Part shown: in pieces, positions 10,919-35,136 of the stretch
Layout: the number at the start of each line of letters is the position of its first letter
Numbering within the stretch: position 1 is the first letter of the stretch
Source: a virus
DNA: 42,836 nt
Virus record (IMG/VR): IMGVR_UViG_3300037246_001783
Coordinates: 1-42,836 of that record
Direction: 5' to 3' (one strand)
Made by a program: the position numbers and the translations under genes
The notes under the pieces: generated by a model
Told to the model about the DNA's origin: nothing
Databases searched by the model: none
Seen by the model: only the letters and a program-made list of their open reading frames with translations

Positions 10919-11551
10919 ATGAATATTATTTATGAGAAAAAAGACAAGTTGTTGAGATGTTTTTTAGGTTGGGGGGAGATAGCATATTGTAAGCTTGAAA
11001 TTAGTGGGCTTGCTTTTCGCGTAGAGTTCCCCTCTGATTGGCATGAGGAAAAACTAGGATGGGTCACTGTCGGGGCTGGTCTTTTTAGGTTCGGGCTGGC
11101 TTTCCCCTGGAAGTGGATTGTCCCAGACAATTACCAGTGTTCAGGGCCACAATATGGTTTTGCTTTCTTTGCCGATTCTTTATTTTTGTATTGGGGAAAA
11201 TGTAATGGTGTGAAGGATGATCCTCTCAAGTCAATACAGATGCCGTGGGGGTGGAGGTTTGTAGAACATAAAATACTATCTGAAAAAGAAACCCACAATT
11301 ACACCTACCATTTAAAGTCGGGAAAAAGCCAAAAACGGCAAGCTACTATCTTGAAACAATCAAGGGAATGGGTGAGGCCGTGGATACCAAAAAGGCTCTA
11401 CCGCGAAAGCATTGATATCGAATTCAATGATGAAGTTGGTGAGAGGTCCGGCAGCTGGAAGGGAGGAACAATTGGATGTGGTTATAATCTACTACCCAAC
11501 GAAACGCTACTACAATGCTTGCGGCGTATGGAGGTAGAGCGTAAATTTTAG
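10919..11551 (+). CDS. Conserved phage protein of unknown function (210 aa)
   Basis: ATG 10919 follows GAGGAGG by about 14 nt. The protein is rich in Trp and aromatic residues in its first 110 positions. It ends with a Gly-Ser-Trp-Lys-Gly-Gly-Thr-Ile-Gly-Cys-Gly-Tyr segment and a Cys-Leu-Arg-Arg-Met-Glu helix. I recall this C-terminal signature from many phage genomes, usually inside replication modules, but I know of no established role. There is no membrane segment or clear catalytic motif. Confidence 0.7.
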   Translation: MNIIYEKKDKLLRCFLGWGEIAYCKLEISGLAFRVEFPSDWHEEKLGWVTVGAGLFRFGLAFPWKWIVPDNYQCSGPQYGFAFFADSLFLYWGKCNGVKDDPLKSIQMPWGWRFVEHKILSEKETHNYTYHLKSGKSQKRQATILKQSREWVRPWIPKRLYRESIDIEFNDEVGERSGSWKGGTIGCGYNLLPNETLLQCLRRMEVERKF

Positions 11552-11786: not shown

Positions 11787-12079
11787 GAGAACGTGATATA
11801 GAAAAATACCTTGTGCAAAAGGTCAAAAAGCTCGGAGGCATAGCCTATAAGTTTACCAGCCCGGCGCGAAGGAGCGTACCAGATAGACTCTGCGTTTTAC
11901 CTAAAAACGAGGTATTTTTCGTCGAGCTTAAGGCTCCGGGCAAAAAGCCTACAGAAGGGCAGGAGCGTGAGATCGCAAGGCTCAGGGCGTTAGGCTGTAA
12001 GGTCTTTGTAATAGACAGCAAAGAAGGTGTCGATAAGCTATTGGCAGAGGAGATGGTTGATGAGCGCATATTACAATGA
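11783..12079 (+). CDS. VRR-NUC domain nuclease
   Basis: The 98-aa product is a standalone VRR-NUC (PD-(D/E)XK superfamily) protein. It has a Val-Pro-Asp-Arg motif with D34, then Phe-Phe-Val-Glu-Leu-Lys (E48-x-K50) and Q60, the complete active site of this family. Phage VRR-NUC proteins are thought to cut branched or flap DNA, such as Holliday junctions. It starts within the previous stop and overlaps the methyltransferase start by 20 nt. Length and position between PolA and SNF2-like helicase are typical of phage replication cassettes. Confidence 0.92.
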   Translation: MRERDIEKYLVQKVKKLGGIAYKFTSPARRSVPDRLCVLPKNEVFFVELKAPGKKPTEGQEREIARLRALGCKVFVIDSKEGVDKLLAEEMVDERILQ

Positions 12080-13031
12080 GATAGATCCCTATGCTGCTCA
12101 ATGGTTGCGTAACTTAATCCAAGCTGGTCATATTGCACCAGGTGTAGTTGATGAAAGGAGCATTGAAGATGTCACACCAAATGACCTTAAAGGCTTTACT
12201 CAGTGCCATTTTTTCGCAGGAGTCGGGATCTGGAGCCTTGCACTACGTCGAGCAGGTTGGCCTGATGATCGACCAGTATGGACGGGAAGTTGTCCTTGCC
12301 AACCTTTCAGCGCGGCAGGCAAAGCAGGCGGGTTTGATGACGAGCGGCACCTATGGCCAGCATTCCACCACCTCATTGAGCAGTGCGACCCTGATGTCGT
12401 CTTTGGTGAGCAGGTTGCGAGTAAGGACGGCCTCAATTGGTTCGACCTTGTACAAGCTGACATGGAAGGAGCGGGTTACTCCGCAGGGGCAATTGATCTC
12501 TGCTCTGCGAGCGTCGGTGCGCCGCACATCAGGCAAAGGCTCTGGTTTGTTGCTGAACGCGACCGGATGGCAGACTCCGACAGTAACCGCAATATCGGAA
12601 CGGTCGGCGGAATCAATGCAACAACGAAAAGCGTGGCGGGAGTCTCTGGGTCGAAAGACTGTACCCCCAGGGAACCTCGCGGAACAAATCACGATGTGCT
12701 TAACGGGTTGGCCAACTCCGAAACTACAGAATGCAAACAGTCCGGGGATACACGGAATGGGCGGACAAGATCTCCAAACAGTGACAACAATGTTCATAAC
12801 CCCTCACCGACTAACGGCTTCTGGCGAGATGCTGACTGGCTCTTCTGCCGAGATGGAAAGTGGAGGCCAGTTGAGCCCGGCACATCCCCGTTGGCTCATG
12901 GGGCTACCTCAAGAGTGGGACGACTGCGCGCCTACGGAAACGCTATCAATGCTGAAGCAGCGGAAACGTTCATTCGAGGATACCTTGATGCATTGGAAAT
13001 TCCGAGATCTACTGGGGTAGAAGATCTATGA
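12060..13031 (+). CDS. DNA (cytosine-5) methyltransferase
   Basis: The 323-aa start at ATG 12060 has GAGGAGA 6 nt upstream; an earlier in-frame ATG at 12027 lacks a site. Motif I is Phe-Ala-Gly-Val-Gly (52-56). Motif IV is Pro-Cys-Gln (catalytic C80), then Glu-Gln-Val (117-119), Gln-Arg-Leu-Trp-Phe-Val-Ala and a C-terminal Ala-Tyr-Gly-Asn-Ala-Ile motif. Residues about 170-255 are low-complexity and Ser/Asn/Thr/Gly-rich where a target-recognition domain would lie. It likely marks phage DNA against host restriction. The gene is overlapped almost completely by another frame (12169-13020). Its stop overlaps a broken copy of the helicase start (ATGA at 13028), which suggests that it originally adjoined the helicase gene. 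Confidence 0.88.
12169..13020 (+). CDS. Conserved phage protein encoded in an alternate frame of the methyltransferase gene
   Basis: This 283-codon frame lies wholly inside the methyltransferase gene. It has its own start (ATG 12169) with AAAGGAG exactly 8 nt before it. The product contains [10 protein letters not shown], [10 protein letters not shown], two Gly-Trp-x-Thr-Pro repeats, and a late [12 protein letters not shown] signature. I recall these motifs from a widespread phage family that is often annotated as hypothetical or, misleadingly, as a methyltransferase. Its activity is unknown. It could be an accessory to the methyltransferase, or an ORF kept open by the constraint on the other frame. 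The good ribosome site favours expression. Confidence 0.6.
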
Positions 13032-15414: not shown

Positions 15415-15781
15415 AAGGCAGGATAACTGCCGAACGTGTAAAAAGGTTACCAGTCACACTAAGATATACAATTCCAATACGATAGCAGAAGAATGGGTGT
15501 GCGCCAAGTGCTCCACACCAAAAAGGCCCGGTGACTTTCCAATTGACGAACCGCCAGGGGGCTCTACGCCCAGTCAATATGCCATACCTGAAGACGCTGA
15601 GAACTTGCAGGATCTAATCGAACATCGCAACATGAACTTTGCCATGGGCAATATGTTTAAGGCCATCTATCGCTTCGGGAATTGCGAACACTCCGATCCG
15701 CTTCGTGACTTAAATAAAATTATCTGGTTTGCAAACCGCGAAATAGGGAGGTTAGAAGATGGGCGAAATAAAAACAAATAA
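15398..15781 (+). CDS. Zinc ribbon plus DUF3310-like protein
   Basis: The 127-aa product starts at ATG 15398 (AGGAGGA upstream) and overlaps the helicase end by 17 nt. The N-terminal 40 residues form a zinc ribbon (Cys-Arg-Thr-Cys and Cys-Ala-Lys-Cys). The C-terminal half (about 60-120) has Asp-Leu-Ile-Glu, Phe-Ala-Met-Gly-Asn-Met-Phe-Lys-Ala-Ile-Tyr-Arg and Asp-Leu-Asn-Lys-Ile-Ile-Trp-Phe segments. These fit DUF3310, often labelled a phage nucleotide-kinase-like protein although the activity is not well proven. A role in nucleotide metabolism is possible. Confidence 0.7.
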   Translation: MSGSLERQDNCRTCKKVTSHTKIYNSNTIAEEWVCAKCSTPKRPGDFPIDEPPGGSTPSQYAIPEDAENLQDLIEHRNMNFAMGNMFKAIYRFGNCEHSDPLRDLNKIIWFANREIGRLEDGRNKNK

Positions 15782-16151
15782 TAGATTCGATAGTTTAACC
15801 AATTTAGATATCTCTACACACTATAGGAATATAGAGTTTTGGGTGATGTTGTCTAGTTTTCAAGCTGCATTTACTTACTGGGTTGTAGCCCAAAACCCCA
15901 ACAAGGAACTTATAGACATACGTCCATCCCTTAGAGCTTTCAGAGATCATATAGCGACGATATTTGACGACCCAAGATTACCAGAGCAGTTCACTTATGA
16001 GCAACTTCAAGAAGTGATAAACGAAGAAGCATTAGGCTCTATACCTGAGATTTTAGAGTTAAATAAATTAAAACCCGACTTCATAGATCTTGGTGCTTTG
16101 GCAAGAAATGTTTTCTACATGATATTGAGAGAACATATTACACAAGATTAA
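15759..16151 (+). CDS. Unknown protein (130 aa)
   Basis: ATG 15759 follows a GGGAGG site within the end of the DUF3310-like gene (23-nt overlap). The protein is helical and mixed in charge, without Cys-pair motifs or a convincing membrane segment, although residues about 28-45 are moderately hydrophobic and aromatic. It is the penultimate gene before the block terminator. No family is recognised. Confidence 0.55.
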   Translation: MGEIKTNNRFDSLTNLDISTHYRNIEFWVMLSSFQAAFTYWVVAQNPNKELIDIRPSLRAFRDHIATIFDDPRLPEQFTYEQLQEVINEEALGSIPEILELNKLKPDFIDLGALARNVFYMILREHITQD

Positions 16152-27645: not shown

Positions 27646-28254
27646 TTACCATCCGCTTTTCTTTATTTTTCCTGTCGATACTTTGCGGGAATGCTCTTCC
27701 ATCAGCGAGTTATAAGCATCTATCTCACTCATTTTTGCTGTTTGCGCGTTAGTGTGATCCTTCAAGTGGTGGTTACATACATCCCACATCGCCCTGTGCC
27801 TTACCAGCTCTGACCCTTCATTAGTCCATGAGTTTGAAGCTGAAGGCGAGTCGAGTGCTGATAACTCGGCCTCATAAGATAGCGTGATAATGTATTCGTC
27901 GTTAGCCACTGGATAAAAACGAAACTGGTTTTTATATATTGCCCACTCGTATGGGATGCCTGTATGTACTCCGGTATCTTTGGCGTCAATAGTGCTATAA
28001 TGTACCGCCCGGACAGGGTGCTTAGACCCACTTATGTTCACCATCAATGAGTCAAGATCTTTGAGATTAACTGGTAGGTCGTAGTAGACCTGGCTTGCCG
28101 AGGTCGTCAGTTCCGTCGTAGTTTCCTGAAACCACCAGCTTTTGCGAGAGTAATGAGTAACCGCGCGACTGATCGCTGCTGAAACTTGGGCAGACTTATC
28201 CGTCCGATGTAAATCACCTTCTATTACGCTTTTAAGATTTGCTAAATTCCCCAC
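27646..28254 (-). CDS. Head-tail adaptor (connector) protein
   Basis: The 202-aa product has the layout of podovirus portal adaptors: an N-terminal helix (Asn-Leu-Lys-Ser-Val-Ile-Glu-Gly-Asp-Leu), then Tyr-Ser-Arg-Lys-Ser-Trp-Trp-Phe, a central beta domain with Tyr-Asp-Leu-Pro and Phe-Arg-Phe-Tyr-Pro, and C-terminal helices. It should form the ring under the portal (P22 gp4 / SU10-type adaptor). It lies between the radical-SAM cassette and the tail genes. It overlaps the preceding zinc-finger gene by 23 nt. Confidence 0.7.
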   Translation of the reverse strand: MGNLANLKSVIEGDLHRTDKSAQVSAAISRAVTHYSRKSWWFQETTTELTTSASQVYYDLPVNLKDLDSLMVNISGSKHPVRAVHYSTIDAKDTGVHTGIPYEWAIYKNQFRFYPVANDEYIITLSYEAELSALDSPSASNSWTNEGSELVRHRAMWDVCNHHLKDHTNAQTAKMSEIDAYNSLMEEHSRKVSTGKIKKSGW

Positions 28255-28468
28255 TACAATCCTCTAAATGCTGCTTATATGCCATCTCGTAGCTAAACAC
28301 CTTCCTGCATCCTTCGCATGGAAATTTCCGGTAGGTTCTGTTTTTATAGATCCTAGCTCCCTTCAAAGTTTCCCAAGCCGCGTCCGCCTCACGCCTGTGA
28401 ATCGTCGCTAGATCCTCTGCCTGGTGGCCTCTTATGTTTCCCCGTCTACGCCCCTTAACCCTTTCCAT
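28232..28468 (-). CDS. Small basic zinc-finger protein (78 aa)
   Basis: The frame is open from TTG 28510, but ATG 28468 is the first good start and has GAAGGG upstream. The first 25 residues are basic (Arg-Arg-Arg, Lys). The C-terminal 30 residues contain Cys-x-x-Cys, then His and Cys (Pro-Cys-Glu-Gly-Cys ... His-Leu-Glu-Asp-Cys), a C2HC-type zinc finger like those of DNA-binding phage proteins. It overlaps the radical-SAM gene by 14 nt and the adaptor by 23 nt. Role unknown. Confidence 0.6.
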   Translation of the reverse strand: MERVKGRRRGNIRGHQAEDLATIHRREADAAWETLKGARIYKNRTYRKFPCEGCRKVFSYEMAYKQHLEDCSGEFSKS

Positions 28469-29405
28469 GAATGCACCCTTCACATGGAGTCCCATGAACG
28501 TCACCGTCAAGATGCTTTCTCCTTAAAAGTTGAAAGGCCACGCTATTCCAGCCGTGCATAAAATCTACTTGATTCAGATCTGCCATTTTCCAGTTGTCCG
28601 ACCCATCAAAGCAACATGCAGAGAGCATTCCCTCTGAAGTGATATGTCCTTCCCGGAAAACTGCCCAACAAGGCAGTGGAGTTCTCATCATCTCAAGGCG
28701 ACCCGGATTGCCTCTTACTGGCAACATGCCATGTTCTTTTTCCTGCTCCGTAGCCTGATCACCAAATGATAATAGCGGTAACCAGTAGTGCTCATCTACA
28801 AAGGGCTCTATCTCTTCTGCGACAAGCTTCTCCATAACCGTAGCTTGTATTCCATTGTACTCGATAGAACTCGCATAAAGCTTGGTTTTATACCCCTTCG
28901 CTTCACGAAGTTCCCAAGTAGATTTGAGATTAACAAGCATCTTATCGAAGTTCGAAGGTGCCATGCCTGTTACATGTCGAAACTGAGTTTTACTGGAATA
29001 ATTCATAGAAAATTTGAGTGAATCGAGTCCCGCTTCCATGAGCGGCTGTACCCTAGCTTCGTCAGCCAAAGAGCCATTGGTCGTTAGGAACACGTAGGGA
29101 AACCCGATGTCCTTAGCGAATTTAACCGCTTCAGGGAGCCACCGGCAAAGCAGCGACTCTCCTATATAAAATAATCCAAGCTCTTCGACTCCCGCTGTAC
29201 GCATCTCACTTACTACTGTCTTGAAAAAATCAAAATCCATATCCTTATGCTGTTTTTGGTTCTGCATATGAGCACAGAAAGAGCATTGAAAATTACACTT
29301 CGAAGTTAATTCTATCTTTACGCTTTTCGGCGCGGGAAGAACTTCCTTCCTGAACTTTTCCGGTATTTCCGTAATCTTATCAATTCTGTCTGATATCGTG
29401 TCCAT
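28455..29405 (-). CDS. Radical SAM protein with SPASM-like C-terminus
   Basis: The 316-aa product has the radical-SAM cluster motif C37-x3-C41-x2-C44 after a Lys-Ile-Glu-Leu-Thr-Ser segment. A Gly-Glu-Ser-Leu strand (SAM binding) and Thr-Thr-Asn-Gly-Ser follow. The C-terminus has Pro-Cys-Trp, Ala-Cys-Cys-Phe-Asp and Pro-Cys-Glu-Gly-Cys, like SPASM/twitch auxiliary cluster domains. Such enzymes modify peptides or sugars by radical chemistry, often beside glycosyltransferase genes. The substrate here is unknown; its neighbours suggest a surface or virion glycan. ATG 29405 has GGAGAGG upstream. Confidence 0.88.
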   Translation of the reverse strand: MDTISDRIDKITEIPEKFRKEVLPAPKSVKIELTSKCNFQCSFCAHMQNQKQHKDMDFDFFKTVVSEMRTAGVEELGLFYIGESLLCRWLPEAVKFAKDIGFPYVFLTTNGSLADEARVQPLMEAGLDSLKFSMNYSSKTQFRHVTGMAPSNFDKMLVNLKSTWELREAKGYKTKLYASSIEYNGIQATVMEKLVAEEIEPFVDEHYWLPLLSFGDQATEQEKEHGMLPVRGNPGRLEMMRTPLPCWAVFREGHITSEGMLSACCFDGSDNWKMADLNQVDFMHGWNSVAFQLLRRKHLDGDVHGTPCEGCIHGKG

Positions 29406-29571
29406 CGTTTTCCTCTCCGTTCTTCGGTTTGATTTTTTTGCTACGTTTTATATCAATCATAGGCATGATCTTTCCGGCCTTCATTTTGACCGTTACAGTG
29501 CCGTAGTGATTCTGCTTTTCCAAAATACCGAACTCAGCCATAAGCTCATCTTTAGTGATGTTGTCAGTCAT
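29380..29571 (-). CDS. Small basic protein between methyltransferase and radical SAM genes (63 aa)
   Basis: The 63-aa product starts at ATG 29571, 3 nt after the methyltransferase stop, and overlaps the radical-SAM start by 26 nt. Its first half is Asp/Glu-containing, and the second half is basic (Ile-Lys-Arg-Ser-Lys-Lys-Ile-Lys-Pro). Such overlap suggests coupling within the cassette. No family is recognised; it could be a substrate or partner of the radical-SAM enzyme, but this is speculation. Confidence 0.5.
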   Translation of the reverse strand: MTDNITKDELMAEFGILEKQNHYGTVTVKMKAGKIMPMIDIKRSKKIKPKNGEENDGHDIRQN

Positions 29572-29574
29572 GGT

Positions 29575-30066
29575 CTACCCTTTCACCGCTTCAATTCGCA
29601 TATCGCGTTGTGCCACGTGGAACTTAGGTTTTACCCATTCGAGATCCTTAAACCCATGACTCTCTAAAAGTTTACCCAGTGCCTCACCTGACCAGCACCA
29701 TTTATGTAGATCCGCTTCACTTTTATGGGTAGCAGGATCCCCAAATAGCGGGAACATAATGAGCTGGGGATCTGATATGCCCTGACGGATCATCTGAAAA
29801 ACTTTTTCCAAACAAGGCATCTCAAGGACTAATCTGCCTCCTTTCTTCAAGACTCGTTTCCACTCGGTAAGGATCATGTCTACTTCCTTAAGATAGAAGT
29901 GCTCGAACACATGGATTGCCATAATCTCATCTGCACTGTCATCGTCGAAGGGTAGCACCCTTATGTCTGCCTCGACATCAGGCTTTACTTTGTAGGCGTT
30001 ATCGGGAAAGTCCACGTTAGTGTATCCCGGTAAAATTTTCTTTCCGCAGCCCAAGTTTAAGCGCAT
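29575..30066 (-). CDS. Class I SAM-dependent methyltransferase
   Basis: The product has about 163 aa. ATG 30066 is chosen (GGGAGA upstream; the stop of the previous gene is just after it). Motif I is Leu-Asn-Leu-Gly-Cys-Gly-Lys-Lys, followed by Asn-Val-Asp (adenosine-ribose binding), Asp-Ile-Arg-Val-Leu-Pro-Phe and a Met-Ala-Ile-His-Val-Phe-Glu-His motif, as in the Methyltransf_11 type. These enzymes often methylate sugars. Within the cassette it follows the GT-B glycosyltransferase, so sugar capping is a reasonable guess. Confidence 0.85.
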   Translation of the reverse strand: MRLNLGCGKKILPGYTNVDFPDNAYKVKPDVEADIRVLPFDDDSADEIMAIHVFEHFYLKEVDMILTEWKRVLKKGGRLVLEMPCLEKVFQMIRQGISDPQLIMFPLFGDPATHKSEADLHKWCWSGEALGKLLESHGFKDLEWVKPKFHVAQRDMRIEAVKG

Positions 30067-30980
30067 AATACTTTCTCCCATTGCTTGCCAATCTTGGTTG
30101 GGTCATGGCGCTCTCTGACGTATTCCTGCGCAGAGGCTATTTTGCCCTCTATATACTCTTGAGGCTGCATCTGTAGCCAGTTAATCCCGTTCTTGATGTC
30201 CCCTATCCATAAAGAGTCGAAAGCCTTGTACGATGGCAAAGCATCCGCTAAAACGTACTTACCCCTTCTAACCGCTTCTACCAATCTGTTTGGTGATTTA
30301 ACCCTCTGCCTTTCACCCATCTCAGAAGGAAGGATTACCGCATCGCACATCGCTAAAGCTTCTAAGATATTCTTTTCGCTATAAGGGATGATCGGTATCG
30401 GTTTATCGTTAACCTTTACCAAATTCTGTATCGCAGGGTCGGACACGATCATCACCATATGCTCCCCTATTTGCGGCCAAAACTCTACGAGACTCTTAAT
30501 ATTGGAAGGATGCCCAAACCAAAGTAACTTTAAAGGCGTTCCCTCCTTATGCGTAAAGCTTGGTGCTACCTCATCAAACTCATAGGGATCCTCTATGACT
30601 GTTGCTTTGATCCCTGTTTCTTTTTTAATCACATCGGCCATCATTTTTGTAGAAGCGATTACTATATCTACATCTGCGAGCATTTTGAGATAGTGATTTC
30701 TGTGTTCTGTTTGGAAATGGTTGTCACAGCAATGAAACACTGTTTTTATACCCCTACTTCTGCAAACATCAACATAGAACGGATCGCCACCATTGAAATG
30801 CTTGTGGAAAACGCACACATCGCTCGTTAAGTCAGGCCAACCGCTAACTCTTACATCATGTCCGTAGCTCCGTAGCTCCCTCGCTGGTATCTGCACATGG
30901 TATCTGTGAGAGGCCATCAGGTTGTTCGATTGTGTCACAAAGGTTATCCTCTTGGGTTTTTCCCTTTTTTGATCTTTCAT
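30057..30980 (-). CDS. GT-B glycosyltransferase (group 1/GT4-like)
   Basis: The product has about 307 aa. ATG 30980 has GAGGAG 8 nt upstream and is preferred over ATG 30998. It has an N-terminal Rossmann half with Ile-Thr-Phe-Val and His-Arg-Tyr-His-Val, and a linker followed by Leu-Lys-Leu-Leu-Trp-Phe-Gly-His. The C-terminal half has Met-Cys-Asp-Ala-Val-Ile-Leu-Pro-Ser and Ser-Pro-Asn-Arg-Leu-Val-Glu-Ala-Val-Arg, the GT4 nucleotide-sugar site region. The start lies inside the upstream TPR gene (125-nt overlap). Sugar donor and acceptor are unknown. Confidence 0.8.
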   Translation of the reverse strand: MKDQKREKPKRITFVTQSNNLMASHRYHVQIPARELRSYGHDVRVSGWPDLTSDVCVFHKHFNGGDPFYVDVCRSRGIKTVFHCCDNHFQTEHRNHYLKMLADVDIVIASTKMMADVIKKETGIKATVIEDPYEFDEVAPSFTHKEGTPLKLLWFGHPSNIKSLVEFWPQIGEHMVMIVSDPAIQNLVKVNDKPIPIIPYSEKNILEALAMCDAVILPSEMGERQRVKSPNRLVEAVRRGKYVLADALPSYKAFDSLWIGDIKNGINWLQMQPQEYIEGKIASAQEYVRERHDPTKIGKQWEKVLCA

Positions 30981-32436
30981 TTTTGGACTCCTCGGCATAT
31001 TTTGAGTAATCGACTAATCTCTTTTCTTCGATGGACTTCATCAAAGCCGCTAGATCCTCCGTGACGGTTCTGATTATTTTGTTCCATTTAAAGAGTTCTT
31101 TTTGCTGATACTGGATGACGCTTGGATACCATGGGACTGTCTTATTATCCGCGTCAGGCGACCAATAGCGCCATGCTTTTGCTTTCGGCGTTAACGTCCA
31201 GCACGGTTTGCCTAAGGCACCTGCTAAATGGTGTACTGAGGTGTTCACTGTGATAACAAGATCCAAAGCTTCTATAAGCGCCGCTGTCTCGCCGTAATCG
31301 TTCGCCTGTACCGCAGAGGGCCAATGGTGTATCCTTATGTCAAGCTTATCTTCAGCTTCCGCGATTGTGTTATACGCATCCGGCGTATATTGGAGTGAAA
31401 TAAAGTCGCAGTTTTGCCTTAAGATCGGTTCCCATTTTTCGAGAGCAATAGACCTGTAATCCTTTCGCGTTTTAACGTAGCCACCTGTCCATGAGATACC
31501 TACCTTAATCCTTTTACCTAGCTTCGCAAGTTTTCTCCGATAGTGTTCTACCCTGTTCTCATCAGCTTTCAAGTAACCTTCGTGTGTCGGGAATGTTTCT
31601 AAATCCCGTCTGAAAAACCTTCCCAAGTCGCCTGTAGCTACCTTCGCATTCAGCTCAGGGTGTTTGTCCACCCAGGAGATATAATTATCTTTTCGGGTGC
31701 CGTAAATTGTCACATCGGGAAAAGACTTCTTAAACAAGGTTACCAATCTGGGGTGGCATTCGAAAACTACACTCTTGGACTTCTCTTTTAGCTCCTTGAT
31801 CATTGAAGCGAAAAGAATCTCATCACCGATCCCTTGCTCTCCCCAAACTACTACATCCTTTCCTTCACTGCCGTCCCACGGCTTTACGTGATCTCCGTAG
31901 CTCCTGAACATACGGTTATTGGTCTTAAAACCCCACTCATATTGGTCAAAGCCCTCTGCATAATGCCCTTGCTCAAGTTGAAGAAGCGCCAAATTCCAGT
32001 TGCCGTCGTTATGGTCTTTTTGCAATTCTATGCACTTTTCAGCATAGGGAACTCCCTCTTTTGGTTTTCCGGCGTTAATGTAGAGCGTTGCAAGGTTGTT
32101 GTAGATATCCGCATGATCTCTGGGATCGGGCCTCTCGATTTCAAGCGCCTTTCTAAAACAAAGTTCAGCAAGTTTACTGTTGTTTATGGTGTGATAGCAA
32201 TTGCCTAGATTATTCCATGATTCAAAATGTTTCTCATGAGTATCTAATACTCGCATAAATAGTTGCGCGGCAAGCCCTGTTATTCCTTTTTGCAGATAAA
32301 CTGTGCCTAACAGGTACAATCCATCCTTAGACTCGAAGTCCTCCGCTAATACTTGAAGTAGCAGCTCTTCAGCTTTCGCATTACGCCCCTGCTTTAAAAA
32401 TTCAGACGCTTTTCTCAGGTTTTCTTTAACACCCAT
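30856..32436 (-). CDS. TPR protein with glycosyltransferase (GT9/GT41-like) domain
   Basis: The 526-aa product has about five tetratricopeptide repeats (about 1-185, e.g. Gly-Asn-Cys-Tyr ... Ala-Glu-Leu-Cys-Phe-Arg-Lys-Ala-Leu). A glycosyltransferase-like domain (about 215-480) has Val-Trp-Gly-Glu-Gln-Gly-Ile-Gly-Asp-Glu, Lys-Val-Gly-Ile-Ser-Trp, and Val-Asn-Thr-Ser-Val-His-His-Leu-Ala-Gly-Ala-Leu-Gly-Lys. These fit the heptosyltransferase/O-GlcNAc-transferase-like fold. TPR-GT proteins often glycosylate proteins such as flagellins. AAGGAGAAG precedes ATG. It opens the cassette right after a terminator. Confidence 0.8.
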   Translation of the reverse strand: MGVKENLRKASEFLKQGRNAKAEELLLQVLAEDFESKDGLYLLGTVYLQKGITGLAAQLFMRVLDTHEKHFESWNNLGNCYHTINNSKLAELCFRKALEIERPDPRDHADIYNNLATLYINAGKPKEGVPYAEKCIELQKDHNDGNWNLALLQLEQGHYAEGFDQYEWGFKTNNRMFRSYGDHVKPWDGSEGKDVVVWGEQGIGDEILFASMIKELKEKSKSVVFECHPRLVTLFKKSFPDVTIYGTRKDNYISWVDKHPELNAKVATGDLGRFFRRDLETFPTHEGYLKADENRVEHYRRKLAKLGKRIKVGISWTGGYVKTRKDYRSIALEKWEPILRQNCDFISLQYTPDAYNTIAEAEDKLDIRIHHWPSAVQANDYGETAALIEALDLVITVNTSVHHLAGALGKPCWTLTPKAKAWRYWSPDADNKTVPWYPSVIQYQQKELFKWNKIIRTVTEDLAALMKSIEEKRLVDYSKYAEESKNERSKKGKTQEDNLCDTIEQPDGLSQIPCADTSEGATELRT

Positions 32437-32501: not shown

Positions 32502-32939
32502 TTAGTCATCCAACTGGTACATAACAGCCAATGAGATGGCCCCTGAATTAGTACCGCTGCCGGTAAAATCCGAGGCTTTAATTTCGATCATAGTGTATCT
32601 GGGCGATGCTGCATCAGAGATGTCGTATTGATGCCCGACACCGATTGCTGTGTTAATATGCTGCGCCGCAATTACCGCACTTGCATCCGCCGAAGCAATC
32701 AACCTGTCGTGATCAGCCCTGTCACCCACATTCAGCGTACCGGCCTCTCCTGGTCGGACTGCTGTTGATAGTATCGCGTCGATAACCCTGGCCCCGTCGG
32801 GCAGTTTCATCATTTGGATAATATCACCAGCGGAGAGTGTAGCTGTCAGTGAGTACACTGAAAATTGAGAATTTACCCCCGCATGAAGAAAACGGGGCTG
32901 TACGCCACTCTTGGCGAGTGAACCAACTAGTGTAGACAT
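32502..32939 (-). CDS. Capsid-associated protein downstream of MCP (145 aa)
   Basis: The product is beta-rich with Ala/Ser/Gly content and a Leu-Pro-Asp-Gly-Ala-Arg-Val-Ile-Asp-Ala motif. It resembles small proteins that follow N4-gp56-type capsid genes and may decorate or stabilise the shell. GGAGGT precedes ATG 32939. It ends at a strong terminator, so it is the last gene of the high-level head unit. No experimentally defined family is recognised. Confidence 0.6.
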   Translation of the reverse strand: MSTLVGSLAKSGVQPRFLHAGVNSQFSVYSLTATLSAGDIIQMMKLPDGARVIDAILSTAVRPGEAGTLNVGDRADHDRLIASADASAVIAAQHINTAIGVGHQYDISDAASPRYTMIEIKASDFTGSGTNSGAISLAVMYQLDD

Positions 32940-32958: not shown

Positions 32959-34047
32959 TTAATTAGGGTTTGGCGAGTAGCTTGAGAGTACGATAGTAGA
33001 AAAGTCTTCGCTGTTAAACGTACACTTCGTAATACCGTAGATCAAACCACCTGCGATTCCGAGCTGATTGCCATAGTCAAACAACTCCTCGTTCCAATTC
33101 GCTTCCAGGCCGCTTTTAGTCTGCCGTCCTGTACAAACGACTCCTGCCTGCGCCCCACAAAGCACCGCTCTTGCGACATTCGCCTGTCCAAGAACCGTAT
33201 TATTATTGGCTCCGGTAGCATCTGCTACGCCCCAAGGTGCTCGCGTAGTCTCGTGCATGATAACACCGTTATACTCAGCGATTGCCCCTGTGTAGATGGG
33301 GTTCTTGCTAATCTGCCCACCTTGAACAGCCGCTTTCTGGATGTCCATATACTGAGCTGTATTGGTGTTAGCCCTCAACTGATAGTGCTGAAAAGGACTT
33401 ATAAAGCAGACATATTTCTTATTGCCTCCCACGTTAAGGGGCCTAAGCTGTAGTGGCAAGGTTTTCGCCTTCGTAACAGCCCTGTCAAGCATCGATAAGC
33501 TGAAGATAGAAGACGCTGAAAGAGAAGCTTCTGAATCTGTTCCCGCAACGCCTGTAGCCAAAATCCAATGATTATTGTCTGGAGCTATAGCCGCTTGGTT
33601 TCCTGTCTTCTTCGTATCTGTGATATTAGTGTTTCCTGCGATCTGGTTCATGAAACTTGAATCCATCATTTCACCAAACCAGTCAGATAAGGCAGACCTG
33701 CCTTCTTCCCTGATGTTGTAAGGAACCCTTTGCTCCGACATTTTACCTGCGCTTCGTGTTGCATGCCTTAGCTGATCGATTATAATCGAATCGCTGTAAA
33801 ATGTAAGATCTTCTTCATTCCCTTCAAGTGTCCCATCACCCTGCACTCCATCGCCTGTAAGCAGCATCCTTAAACCGTAAGTCAGTTTATCACCGACCTG
33901 CTTTAGCTCAGGATTTAGCTGAATAAGCGAATCTTGCCCTGTTCCGAGGAACTTATAAATCCATGTCGCCTTAAGCGACTCGCGCATAAGACGCTTGGAA
34001 AAGAGCTTATTGGAGAGTGGGTGGTTGACACCAAACTGTGTTGCCAT
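32959..34047 (-). CDS. Major capsid protein, N4-gp56 family
   Basis: The 362-aa product matches the N4-gp56 major capsid family. It has an N-terminal helix, then a Lys-Phe-Leu-Gly-Thr-Gly segment and Gly-Asp-Lys-Leu-Thr-Tyr. The region Gly-Asp-Gly-Val-Gln-Gly-Asp-Gly-Thr-Leu-Glu-Gly-Asn-Glu-Glu and Ile-Asp-Gln-Leu-Arg-His-Ala-Thr-Arg follows, with a late Tyr-Asn-Gly-Val-Ile-Met-His-Glu strand. It forms the HK97-fold shell. AAGGAGG is 8 nt before ATG. A 165-nt leader separates it from the scaffold gene. Confidence 0.9.
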   Translation of the reverse strand: MATQFGVNHPLSNKLFSKRLMRESLKATWIYKFLGTGQDSLIQLNPELKQVGDKLTYGLRMLLTGDGVQGDGTLEGNEEDLTFYSDSIIIDQLRHATRSAGKMSEQRVPYNIREEGRSALSDWFGEMMDSSFMNQIAGNTNITDTKKTGNQAAIAPDNNHWILATGVAGTDSEASLSASSIFSLSMLDRAVTKAKTLPLQLRPLNVGGNKKYVCFISPFQHYQLRANTNTAQYMDIQKAAVQGGQISKNPIYTGAIAEYNGVIMHETTRAPWGVADATGANNNTVLGQANVARAVLCGAQAGVVCTGRQTKSGLEANWNEELFDYGNQLGIAGGLIYGITKCTFNSEDFSTIVLSSYSPNPN

Positions 34048-34212: not shown

Positions 34213-35136
34213 CTATTTAAAAAGTTTTTCAAAAGCCGCATCGAAATCTTCACCTTCAGCCTCAAGCACCGAAGCTACTGAGGCCTTTGTCTCGACATCT
34301 TCTCCTTGAGGCAATTTTTTCCCTGCGACTTTTTGACCGTTCTTTATGGTATTGAGGGTATCGTCAAGCTTACTGTCATCCCCTTTCAAAGGAGCTTTAT
34401 ACCCTCTGCTCAGAGCAAGCCCATAGAGCACTTCCGCAGGGTTTTTCTCATTCTGCGTAGCCGTCATAGCTGATCTTAGATGGGTGCCTGTTAATTGCTT
34501 TCGGATCTCTGCTTCGTCCGTAACGCCGTAAGCCTTAAGCTCTTTTACAGCCATCTCGTTGAAGTACTTAACCGCCTCAGGGTAGTCTGGGTTCTCTTTA
34601 GCAAAAGCCGTCTCTATCTTATCGACACTTTGCACAAAGTTGTTAAATTCCTGGGCCTTGTCATTATCGCTAAGCTTATCACCCTGCTCTTTTAACTTTT
34701 CGTCTTGAGCCTCGATTTTCTTATTCTGCTCATTAATCTGGTATTGGTTATGAGCTAAAGGCTCTTCTTCAGGATCGGGGATCTCTTCAACTTGCTTTGG
34801 TTGCCTCATCTCTTTGAGCTGTTCTTTAAGCTCATCAACAACGCCCAATTTTCTGTTAGCCTCGTTTAAAAGCTCTTGGATCTTCTGCCTCTCCATTCTT
34901 TCTTGATGGAGCGCCCCATGAGGAACCATCTTAACTTTGTCATCGACCACAGTCTTATCATCGACCACAGTCTTATCATCGACCACAGTCTTATCATCGA
35001 CCACAGTCTTATCATCGACCACAGTCTTATCATCGACAACCCCCCCGTCCTTCTGGAGGTCTTCTACCAACTGCTTTTCTTCTGCCGATATTTCATTCGA
35101 CAGAAGATCCTCTACTATTTCGACTGGTTCTCCCAT
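34213..35136 (-). CDS. Scaffolding protein with VVDDKT repeats
   Basis: The 307-aa acidic, highly helical product lies between portal and capsid, the usual place for scaffolding protein. Residues about 33-67 contain five identical Val-Val-Asp-Asp-Lys-Thr hexapeptides plus a partial copy. The middle (about 75-190) is Glu/Lys/Gln-rich coiled coil, and the C-terminus ends in Phe-Lys after an acidic helix. Scaffold proteins guide capsid assembly and leave the shell. The gene overlaps the portal end by 22 nt. Confidence 0.75.
   Translation of the reverse strand: MGEPVEIVEDLLSNEISAEEKQLVEDLQKDGGVVDDKTVVDDKTVVDDKTVVDDKTVVDDKTVVDDKVKMVPHGALHQERMERQKIQELLNEANRKLGVVDELKEQLKEMRQPKQVEEIPDPEEEPLAHNQYQINEQNKKIEAQDEKLKEQGDKLSDNDKAQEFNNFVQSVDKIETAFAKENPDYPEAVKYFNEMAVKELKAYGVTDEAEIRKQLTGTHLRSAMTATQNEKNPAEVLYGLALSRGYKAPLKGDDSKLDDTLNTIKNGQKVAGKKLPQGEDVETKASVASVLEAEGEDFDAAFEKLFK
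34941..35040. repeat. 18-bp tandem repeat in the scaffold gene
   Basis: CATCGACCACAGTCTTAT occurs in five perfect tandem copies (34941-35030) followed by a partial, altered copy. The exact identity implies recent expansion. Each unit adds one Val-Val-Asp-Asp-Lys-Thr hexapeptide to the scaffold. Confidence 0.95.

What the first reader, a model, noticed from the sequence alone, without database searches (positions are those of the whole stretch)
28232..32436. Glycosyltransferase, methyltransferase and radical-SAM cassette inside the virion operon
Between the capsid genes and the head-tail adaptor lie a TPR-GT protein, a GT4-like enzyme, a methyltransferase, a 63-aa protein, a radical SAM/SPASM-like enzyme and a small zinc-finger gene, all leftward and overlapping or nearly so. 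The gene set looks like a complete small glycan-building or modifying pathway. It could decorate the virion, add sugar to phage or host protein, or change the host surface. Radical-SAM enzymes are unusual in phage structural operons. The 63-aa protein might be a substrate.
Basis: partly seen in the sequence, partly recalled or inferred. Interest (0 to 1): 0.75.

Follow-up and report, generated by a model that had tools for sequence, protein, structure and literature searches.

The report
Capsid-operon sugar-coating genes in phages
This virus and dozens of distinct uncultured relatives carry sugar-transfer genes right behind the gene for their shell protein, probably to build sugar chains on their own particles, and this one adds a radical-chemistry enzyme that may alter the sugar.

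Summary
Six overlapping leftward genes (TPR-glycosyltransferase, GT4-like enzyme, class-I methyltransferase, 63-aa protein, radical SAM/SPASM enzyme, 92-aa zinc-finger-like protein) lie between the capsid/decoration genes and an SU10-type adaptor. The cassette is not a one-off. In 43 of 46 dereplicated viral TPR-GT loci with enough upstream DNA, a major-capsid gene lies within 2.5 kb upstream on the same strand. This holds for two capsid families (Phage_capsid_3, SU10_MCP), and 33 of 43 have the adaptor downstream. The commonest set is TPR-GT + methyltransferase + GT8-like enzyme; the window has a GT4/Methyltransf_11/radical-SAM version. Three cultured relatives lack it. The radical-SAM protein (conserved cluster cysteines; nearest folds BlsE, DesII, BtrN, then SuiB and viperin) occurs in over 100 viral contigs, mostly beside GT/MT genes. 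No cassette protein has a membrane helix, no precursor peptide accompanies the radical-SAM gene, and the 63-aa and zinc-finger genes were found only here. Best reading: cytoplasmic glycosylation of head proteins, OGT-like in architecture, with methyl and radical-SAM tailoring of the glycan. The glycan, its acceptor and the radical-SAM reaction are untested.

The parts
30856..32436 (-). TPR-glycosyltransferase (526 aa): N-terminal TPR superhelix, C-terminal GT-B domain with GT9-type motifs (GEQGIGDE, D205 invariant; SVHHLAGALGKP)
   Evidence: Pfam TPR and Glyco_transf_9; alignments of 24-27 homologues; AF2 pLDDT 90.6; Foldseek SPINDLY/OGT
30057..30998 (-). GT4-like GT-B glycosyltransferase (313 aa)
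   Evidence: weak Pfam Glyco_trans_1_4; conserved family in L002, L017, L079, L084, L086, L225, L236 and bacterial loci with shared residues
29575..30081 (-). class-I SAM methyltransferase (168 aa), intact LNLGCG motif
   Evidence: Methyltransf_11 E 3e-11; homologous domain fused behind the GT4-like enzyme in Azoarcus
29380..29571 (-). 63-aa protein of unknown function, found only in this window
   Evidence: no family; not DUF2292; no homologue in other loci
28455..29405 (-). radical SAM/SPASM-twitch enzyme (316 aa): CX3CX2C (C37, C41, C44) plus C246, C264, C265, C308, C311
   Evidence: Pfam; these cysteines invariant or nearly so in 48 homologues; AF2 pLDDT 86; Foldseek BlsE, DesII, BtrN
28232..28510 (-). 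92-aa protein with a CX2C...HX4C zinc-finger-like motif, TTG start behind AAGGAG, found only in this window
   Evidence: weak C2H2 match; RBS; no homologue in other loci
32502..32939 (-). head decoration-type protein (145 aa), candidate acceptor
   Evidence: PHROG virion structural protein; directly precedes the TPR-GT in most relatives
32959..34047 (-). major capsid protein (Phage_capsid_3), candidate acceptor
27646..28254 (-). SU10-type head-tail adaptor, downstream boundary of the slot
   Evidence: PF24175 E 1e-15

Best explanation
The cassette is a cytoplasmic protein-glycosylation module of the virion operon. The TPR-GT, with a TPR superhelix to hold a protein and a GT-B domain to transfer a sugar (the layout of O-GlcNAc transferase and SPINDLY), puts a first sugar from a host nucleotide-sugar onto a newly made head protein, most likely the decoration protein or the major capsid protein encoded directly upstream. 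The GT4-like enzyme extends it, the methyltransferase caps it with a methyl group, and the radical-SAM enzyme changes a carbon of the sugar (oxidation, epimerisation or deoxygenation) on the glycan or its donor. Shown: gene content, intact motifs, recurrence and position beside the capsid genes in many distinct phages. Inferred: protein acceptor, order of steps, sugar chemistry.
For: Position: 43/46 dereplicated TPR-GT loci have an MCP gene within 2.5 kb upstream on the same strand (Phage_capsid_3 or SU10_MCP), 33/43 have the adaptor downstream; GT8-like in 30/43 and the commonest MT family in 25/43 (MCP identities). TPR-GT profile matched at least 589 viral contigs. RSAM: 52/66 dereplicated viral loci have at least one GT/MT family within 5 kb, 41/66 at least two. 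Related cassettes carry GDP-mannose dehydratase (E 5e-103), DegT aminotransferase (5e-55) and a sialyltransferase-like GT29, sulfotransferase and Maf-type PF01973 proteins. In L003 and L005 (sipho-like) the cassette lies directly before head-completion or connector genes. GT4-MT domains fused in Azoarcus. OGT/SPINDLY architecture; nearest RSAM folds BlsE, DesII, BtrN act on sugars or cyclitols (substrates from general knowledge). No membrane helices. No compositional break.
Against: No glycan has been measured. Whole-chain TM-scores of the TPR-GT to OGT/SPINDLY are only about 0.3, and the shared TPR part probably drives the match. Glyco_transf_9 and GT4 matches are below Pfam cutoffs. Most bacterial RSAM relatives (51 of 63) have no GT/MT neighbour, so the RSAM substrate need not be this glycan. 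SuiB (peptide) and viperin (nucleotide) are also among the RSAM fold matches. Some viral RSAM genes stand alone before the terminase (L009, L016). The 80 TPR-GT loci kept are those most like the window.
Confidence: 0.6

Rival explanations
1. Host-surface modification: the enzymes alter host LPS or capsule late in infection, for superinfection exclusion or to free progeny.
For: GT4-, GT9- and GT8-like enzymes and small SAM methyltransferases are typical of bacterial surface-polysaccharide loci (general knowledge); a bacterial RSAM relative appears to lie in such a locus (L115).
Against: No flippase, polymerase or membrane-bound GT in the cassette; tight tie to capsid genes; TPR domain points to a protein partner.
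Confidence: 0.15
2. DNA or nucleotide modification: GT, MT and RSAM decorate or make modified bases of the packaged genome, or an antiviral-type nucleotide (viperin-like).
For: The RSAM core matches pVip models (E 2e-13) and viperin structures; phage GTs that modify DNA are known (cited in PMC12619734).
Against: RSAM has extra conserved cluster cysteines that viperins lack (general knowledge); no thymidylate-synthase-type hydroxymethylase in the window; genes lie with capsid, not replication, genes.
Confidence: 0.07
3. RiPP-like or side-chain chemistry: the RSAM/SPASM enzyme modifies a peptide, either the 63-aa protein or a residue of a virion protein, and the GTs are separate.
For: SPASM enzymes often act on peptides (general knowledge); SuiB and EpeE are among fold matches.
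Against: 63-aa gene absent from all other RSAM loci; no conserved small ORF beside RSAM; no extra N-terminal domain in the model. A virion-protein side chain as target is not excluded.
Confidence: 0.1
4. The TPR-GT is a head-assembly chaperone that has kept a GT-like fold without sugar transfer.
For: Near-fixed position behind the capsid genes; the Asp of the classical GT9 motif is replaced by N, C, Q or T in many members.
Against: Putative catalytic Asp205, the GG motif, Arg328 and His403 stay conserved; accompanied by other GTs and MTs; many phages with the same capsid type lack it.
Confidence: 0.06

Closest known systems
Mycobacteriophage virion glycosylation (Freeman et al. 2023, described in PMC12619734)
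   Same: Phage glycosylation of capsid and tail proteins, with phage-encoded glycosyltransferases
   Different: No radical-SAM enzyme there as far as I know; different phage lineages and hosts; glycan here is only predicted
Chlorovirus PBCV-1 capsid glycan enzymes A064R/A061L (PMC9614988)
   Same: Virus-encoded, mostly soluble GTs plus SAM methyltransferases build an O-methylated glycan on the major capsid protein; two GT domains and an MT act together
   Different: Eukaryotic virus, N-glycans, unrelated enzyme families, no radical-SAM step
O-GlcNAc transferase / SPINDLY (GT41)
   Same: TPR superhelix joined to a C-terminal GT-B domain; cytoplasmic
   Different: Catalytic part carries GT9-type motifs and no GT41 Pfam model was matched
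GT9 heptosyltransferases (WaaC/WaaF type, TibC)
   Same: GD catalytic motif and HLAGALG motif
   Different: Below the Pfam cutoff; Asp of the D-T-x-x-x-H motif not conserved; TPR fusion
Carbohydrate-acting radical-SAM enzymes BlsE, DesII, BtrN
   Same: Among the top structural matches; radical-SAM core plus C-terminal part
   Different: 13-18% identity, TM about 0.5-0.6; from antibiotic pathways, not tied to virion genes

Membership tests
Radical SAM / SPASM-twitch proteins | CX3CX2C motif for the SAM [4Fe-4S] cluster | tested here: met
   C37, C41, C44 invariant in 48 sequences; Pfam Radical_SAM above cutoff
Radical SAM / SPASM-twitch proteins | C-terminal auxiliary-cluster cysteines | tested here: met
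   C246, C264, C265 invariant, C308, C311 nearly invariant; SPASM above cutoff
Viperin (pVip) | Match over the whole viperin protein, no auxiliary-cluster cysteines | tested here: not met
   pVip matches cover only the core (residues 26-177); auxiliary cysteines present
RiPP maturase | Conserved precursor peptide gene beside the enzyme, RRE domain | tested here: not met
   No conserved small ORF; no extra N-terminal domain in the model
GT9 glycosyltransferase | Glyco_transf_9 match above gathering score | tested here: inconclusive
   19.9 vs 22 bits; Asp205 and His403 conserved, other GT9 Asp variable
GT41 (OGT/SPINDLY) | TPR superhelix plus GT-B domain | tested here: met
   AF2 model and Foldseek, low global TM
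GT41 (OGT/SPINDLY) | GT41 catalytic sequence family | tested here: not met
   No GT41 Pfam match listed at E <= 0.1
Phage virion glycosylation system | GT genes in the virion operon, conserved beside capsid genes | tested here: met
   43/46 loci
Phage virion glycosylation system | Glycan on a virion protein | not testable with these tools
   needs virions and MS
Phage serotype conversion (gtrABC) | Membrane flippase and membrane-bound GT | tested here: not met
   maximum 19-residue Kyte-Doolittle mean is 1.32 in any cassette protein

The most novel reading that the evidence does not exclude
A large uncultured phage assemblage with two capsid lineages carries an OGT-like protein glycosyltransferase as a near-fixed gene behind the capsid genes, and a subset, including this phage, tailors the capsid glycan with a radical-SAM enzyme. 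This would be, as far as I know, the first radical-SAM chemistry on a virus particle and a capsid glycosylation system largely missing from cultured phages.
Probability: 0.35. Interest if true: 0.8.

Novelty: new variant of a known kind. Interest (0 to 1): 0.62.

Why it matters
Capsid glycosylation is documented in few phages. Here a positionally near-fixed glycosyltransferase beside the capsid genes recurs in dozens of distinct uncultured viral genomes, while only two of about 50,700 phage records hold a match covering most of it, the good one being itself metagenomic. If virion proteins are indeed glycosylated, surface properties of many environmental phages (adsorption, grazing, mucus or mineral binding, immune recognition) would differ from the cultured models. 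Radical-SAM tailoring would add an enzyme class to virus glycobiology. The position gives a concrete test: weigh the head proteins.

Tried and rejected
(1) RiPP reading with the 63-aa gene as precursor: no homologue, no conserved small ORF near RSAM in viral or bacterial loci. (2) 63-aa gene as DUF2292, suggested by a motif I recalled: profile search of the window found nothing. (3) Viperin-type defence enzyme: core-only match, extra cysteines present. (4) DNA hypermodification: no thymidylate-synthase-type enzyme. (5) Recent capture: GC and GC3 of the cassette are close to those of the rest of the operon. (6) Decoration protein specific to cassette carriers: a similar-sized protein occupies that place in cassette-free relatives too. 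(7) A single-sequence pattern scan with the window TPR-GT gave nothing. (8) Literature searches for radical SAM with phage capsid glycosylation gave no matching system in the open library. (9) The bacterial RSAM neighbourhood did not reveal its function; the gene is rare in the class sampled (2 of 274 genomes including the seed).

Full report
OBSERVATION. They overlap by 143, 25, 26, 56 and 23 nt with one 3-nt gap, and ribosome-binding-site-like sequence precedes TPR-GT, RSAM and the TTG of the 92-aa gene. Domain calls hold for TPR, methyltransferase, Radical_SAM and SPASM. They are weak for GT9, GT4 and the zinc finger.

WINDOW. The record is a 42.8-kb IMG/VR virus contig. It has a P22-like portal, Phage_capsid_3 capsid, terminase subunits, Prim-Pol, DNA polymerase A and an SNF2-type helicase. 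No tRNA was found.

RELATIVES BY RSAM AND CAPSID. L002 has MCP-decoration-TPRGT-GT4-MT-RSAM-adaptor without the 63-aa and zinc-finger genes. L017 has the same enzymes partly rearranged, with TPR-GT before the portal, plus a sulfotransferase. The cassette proteins are 38-60% identical between these phages and the window, while MCP is about 70% and the adaptor 43%. Cultured relatives from Paracoccus and Microcystis have only 0.6 kb between capsid and adaptor, and a Rhizobium phage has an annotated HNH gene there. A spring-water podovirus, MW202512, has TPR-GT, an FkbM-annotated methyltransferase and a GalT-like gene there. Across capsid relatives the slot is 0.6-0.8 kb when empty and 3.9-5.3 kb when filled with the module. 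Intermediate slots hold other putative GT or MT genes (L023, L024).

TPR-GT AS A VIRION-OPERON GENE. Of 67 dereplicated loci among the 80 kept, 43 of 46 with enough upstream DNA have an MCP gene within 2.5 kb upstream on the same strand, and 33 of 43 have the adaptor downstream. Counting all 67 loci, the MCP found belongs to Phage_capsid_3 in 38 and to SU10_MCP in 16 (SU10_MCP identified). Three of the loci with both flanks lack a nearby MCP: L202, which is the rearranged L017 contig, and L225 and L236. Downstream genes are mostly GT8-like (30/43) and the MTb methyltransferase (25/43); RSAM occurs in 4/43. So the TPR-GT is the constant element and RSAM a minority tailoring gene. This is the strongest result of the study.

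RSAM. 104 viral and 128 bacterial loci encode relatives. In 66 dereplicated viral loci, 52 have at least one and 41 at least two of ten GT/MT families within 5 kb, against 12 and 6 of 63 bacterial loci. Those families were seeded from these same cassettes, so the counts describe co-occurrence rather than test it blindly. In L066 the same cassette carries GDP-mannose 4,6-dehydratase, DegT aminotransferase and GT29 genes. In L003 and L005 it is followed by head-completion or connector genes. The window RSAM groups with L002, L017 and L036; most bacterial copies form one nested clade in a midpoint-rooted tree, so the direction of transfer is open. Cluster cysteines are invariant or nearly so. The model (pLDDT 86) is closest to BlsE, DesII and BtrN, with SuiB and viperin close behind.

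TPR-GT STRUCTURE. The model (pLDDT 90.6) is a TPR superhelix followed by a GT-B-like domain. Whole-chain matches are SPINDLY and OGT, but TM is about 0.3 and the TPR part probably dominates. The GIGDE Asp205 is invariant and His403 nearly so. The Asp of the classical GT9 motif is replaced, so the donor need not be ADP-heptose (role of these residues from general knowledge of WaaC).

BACTERIAL COUNTERPART. Azoarcus sp. L1K30 carries GT8, a GT4-MT fusion, a TPR protein, an NAD-epimerase-like gene, an MT, a TPR-GT and RSAM in one chromosomal stretch, with phage-tail-like genes on one side. The fusion supports GT4 and MT acting in one pathway. The calls for the epimerase, tail and neighbouring genes there are from reading the sequence, not from a profile search.

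MECHANISM AND LIMITS. No cassette protein has a membrane segment and no donor-synthesis gene is in the cassette, so transfer is expected in the cytoplasm from host nucleotide sugars. PBCV-1 A064R/A061L is a good precedent for GT, GT and MT steps on a capsid glycan (PMC9614988). Acceptor, sugar and RSAM reaction remain inferred. The retained TPR-GT loci are those most similar to the window, so the 43/46 figure describes that part of the family.

Noticed in passing
window 10919-11551 (+): Protein matching CBASS inhibitor Acb3 (PF25187, E 1.2e-38): putative anti-defence gene.
   Followed up: no
window 15759-16151 (+): Weak match to the Thoeris inhibitor Tad5 (PF25190, 28.8 vs cutoff 27, short stretch).
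   Followed up: no
window 12027-13031 (+): C5-cytosine DNA methylase (E 1e-13) overlapped by further ORFs.
   Followed up: no
L111, L116, L135 and others of L109-L188: Many Betaproteobacteria MAGs carry this RSAM as a lone chromosomal gene, often near what read as nitrate-reductase or cbb3-oxidase genes; function unknown.
   Followed up: partly
L004 6956-8110, L006 3903-5963: Long collagen-like G-X-Y proteins between a portal-like gene and the glyco cassette; possible glycosylation substrates or fibres.
   Followed up: no
L007 6425-7861 and relatives: Methyltransferase fused to PF01973 (MptE-like, the Maf flagellin-glycosylation type) in phage cassettes.
   Followed up: partly
window 34876-35039 region: Scaffold-type gene holds a tandem VVDDKT repeat near its N-terminus.
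   Followed up: no
L015 9061-9486: Deaminase-like gene inserted in the cassette between TPR-GT and MT.
   Followed up: no
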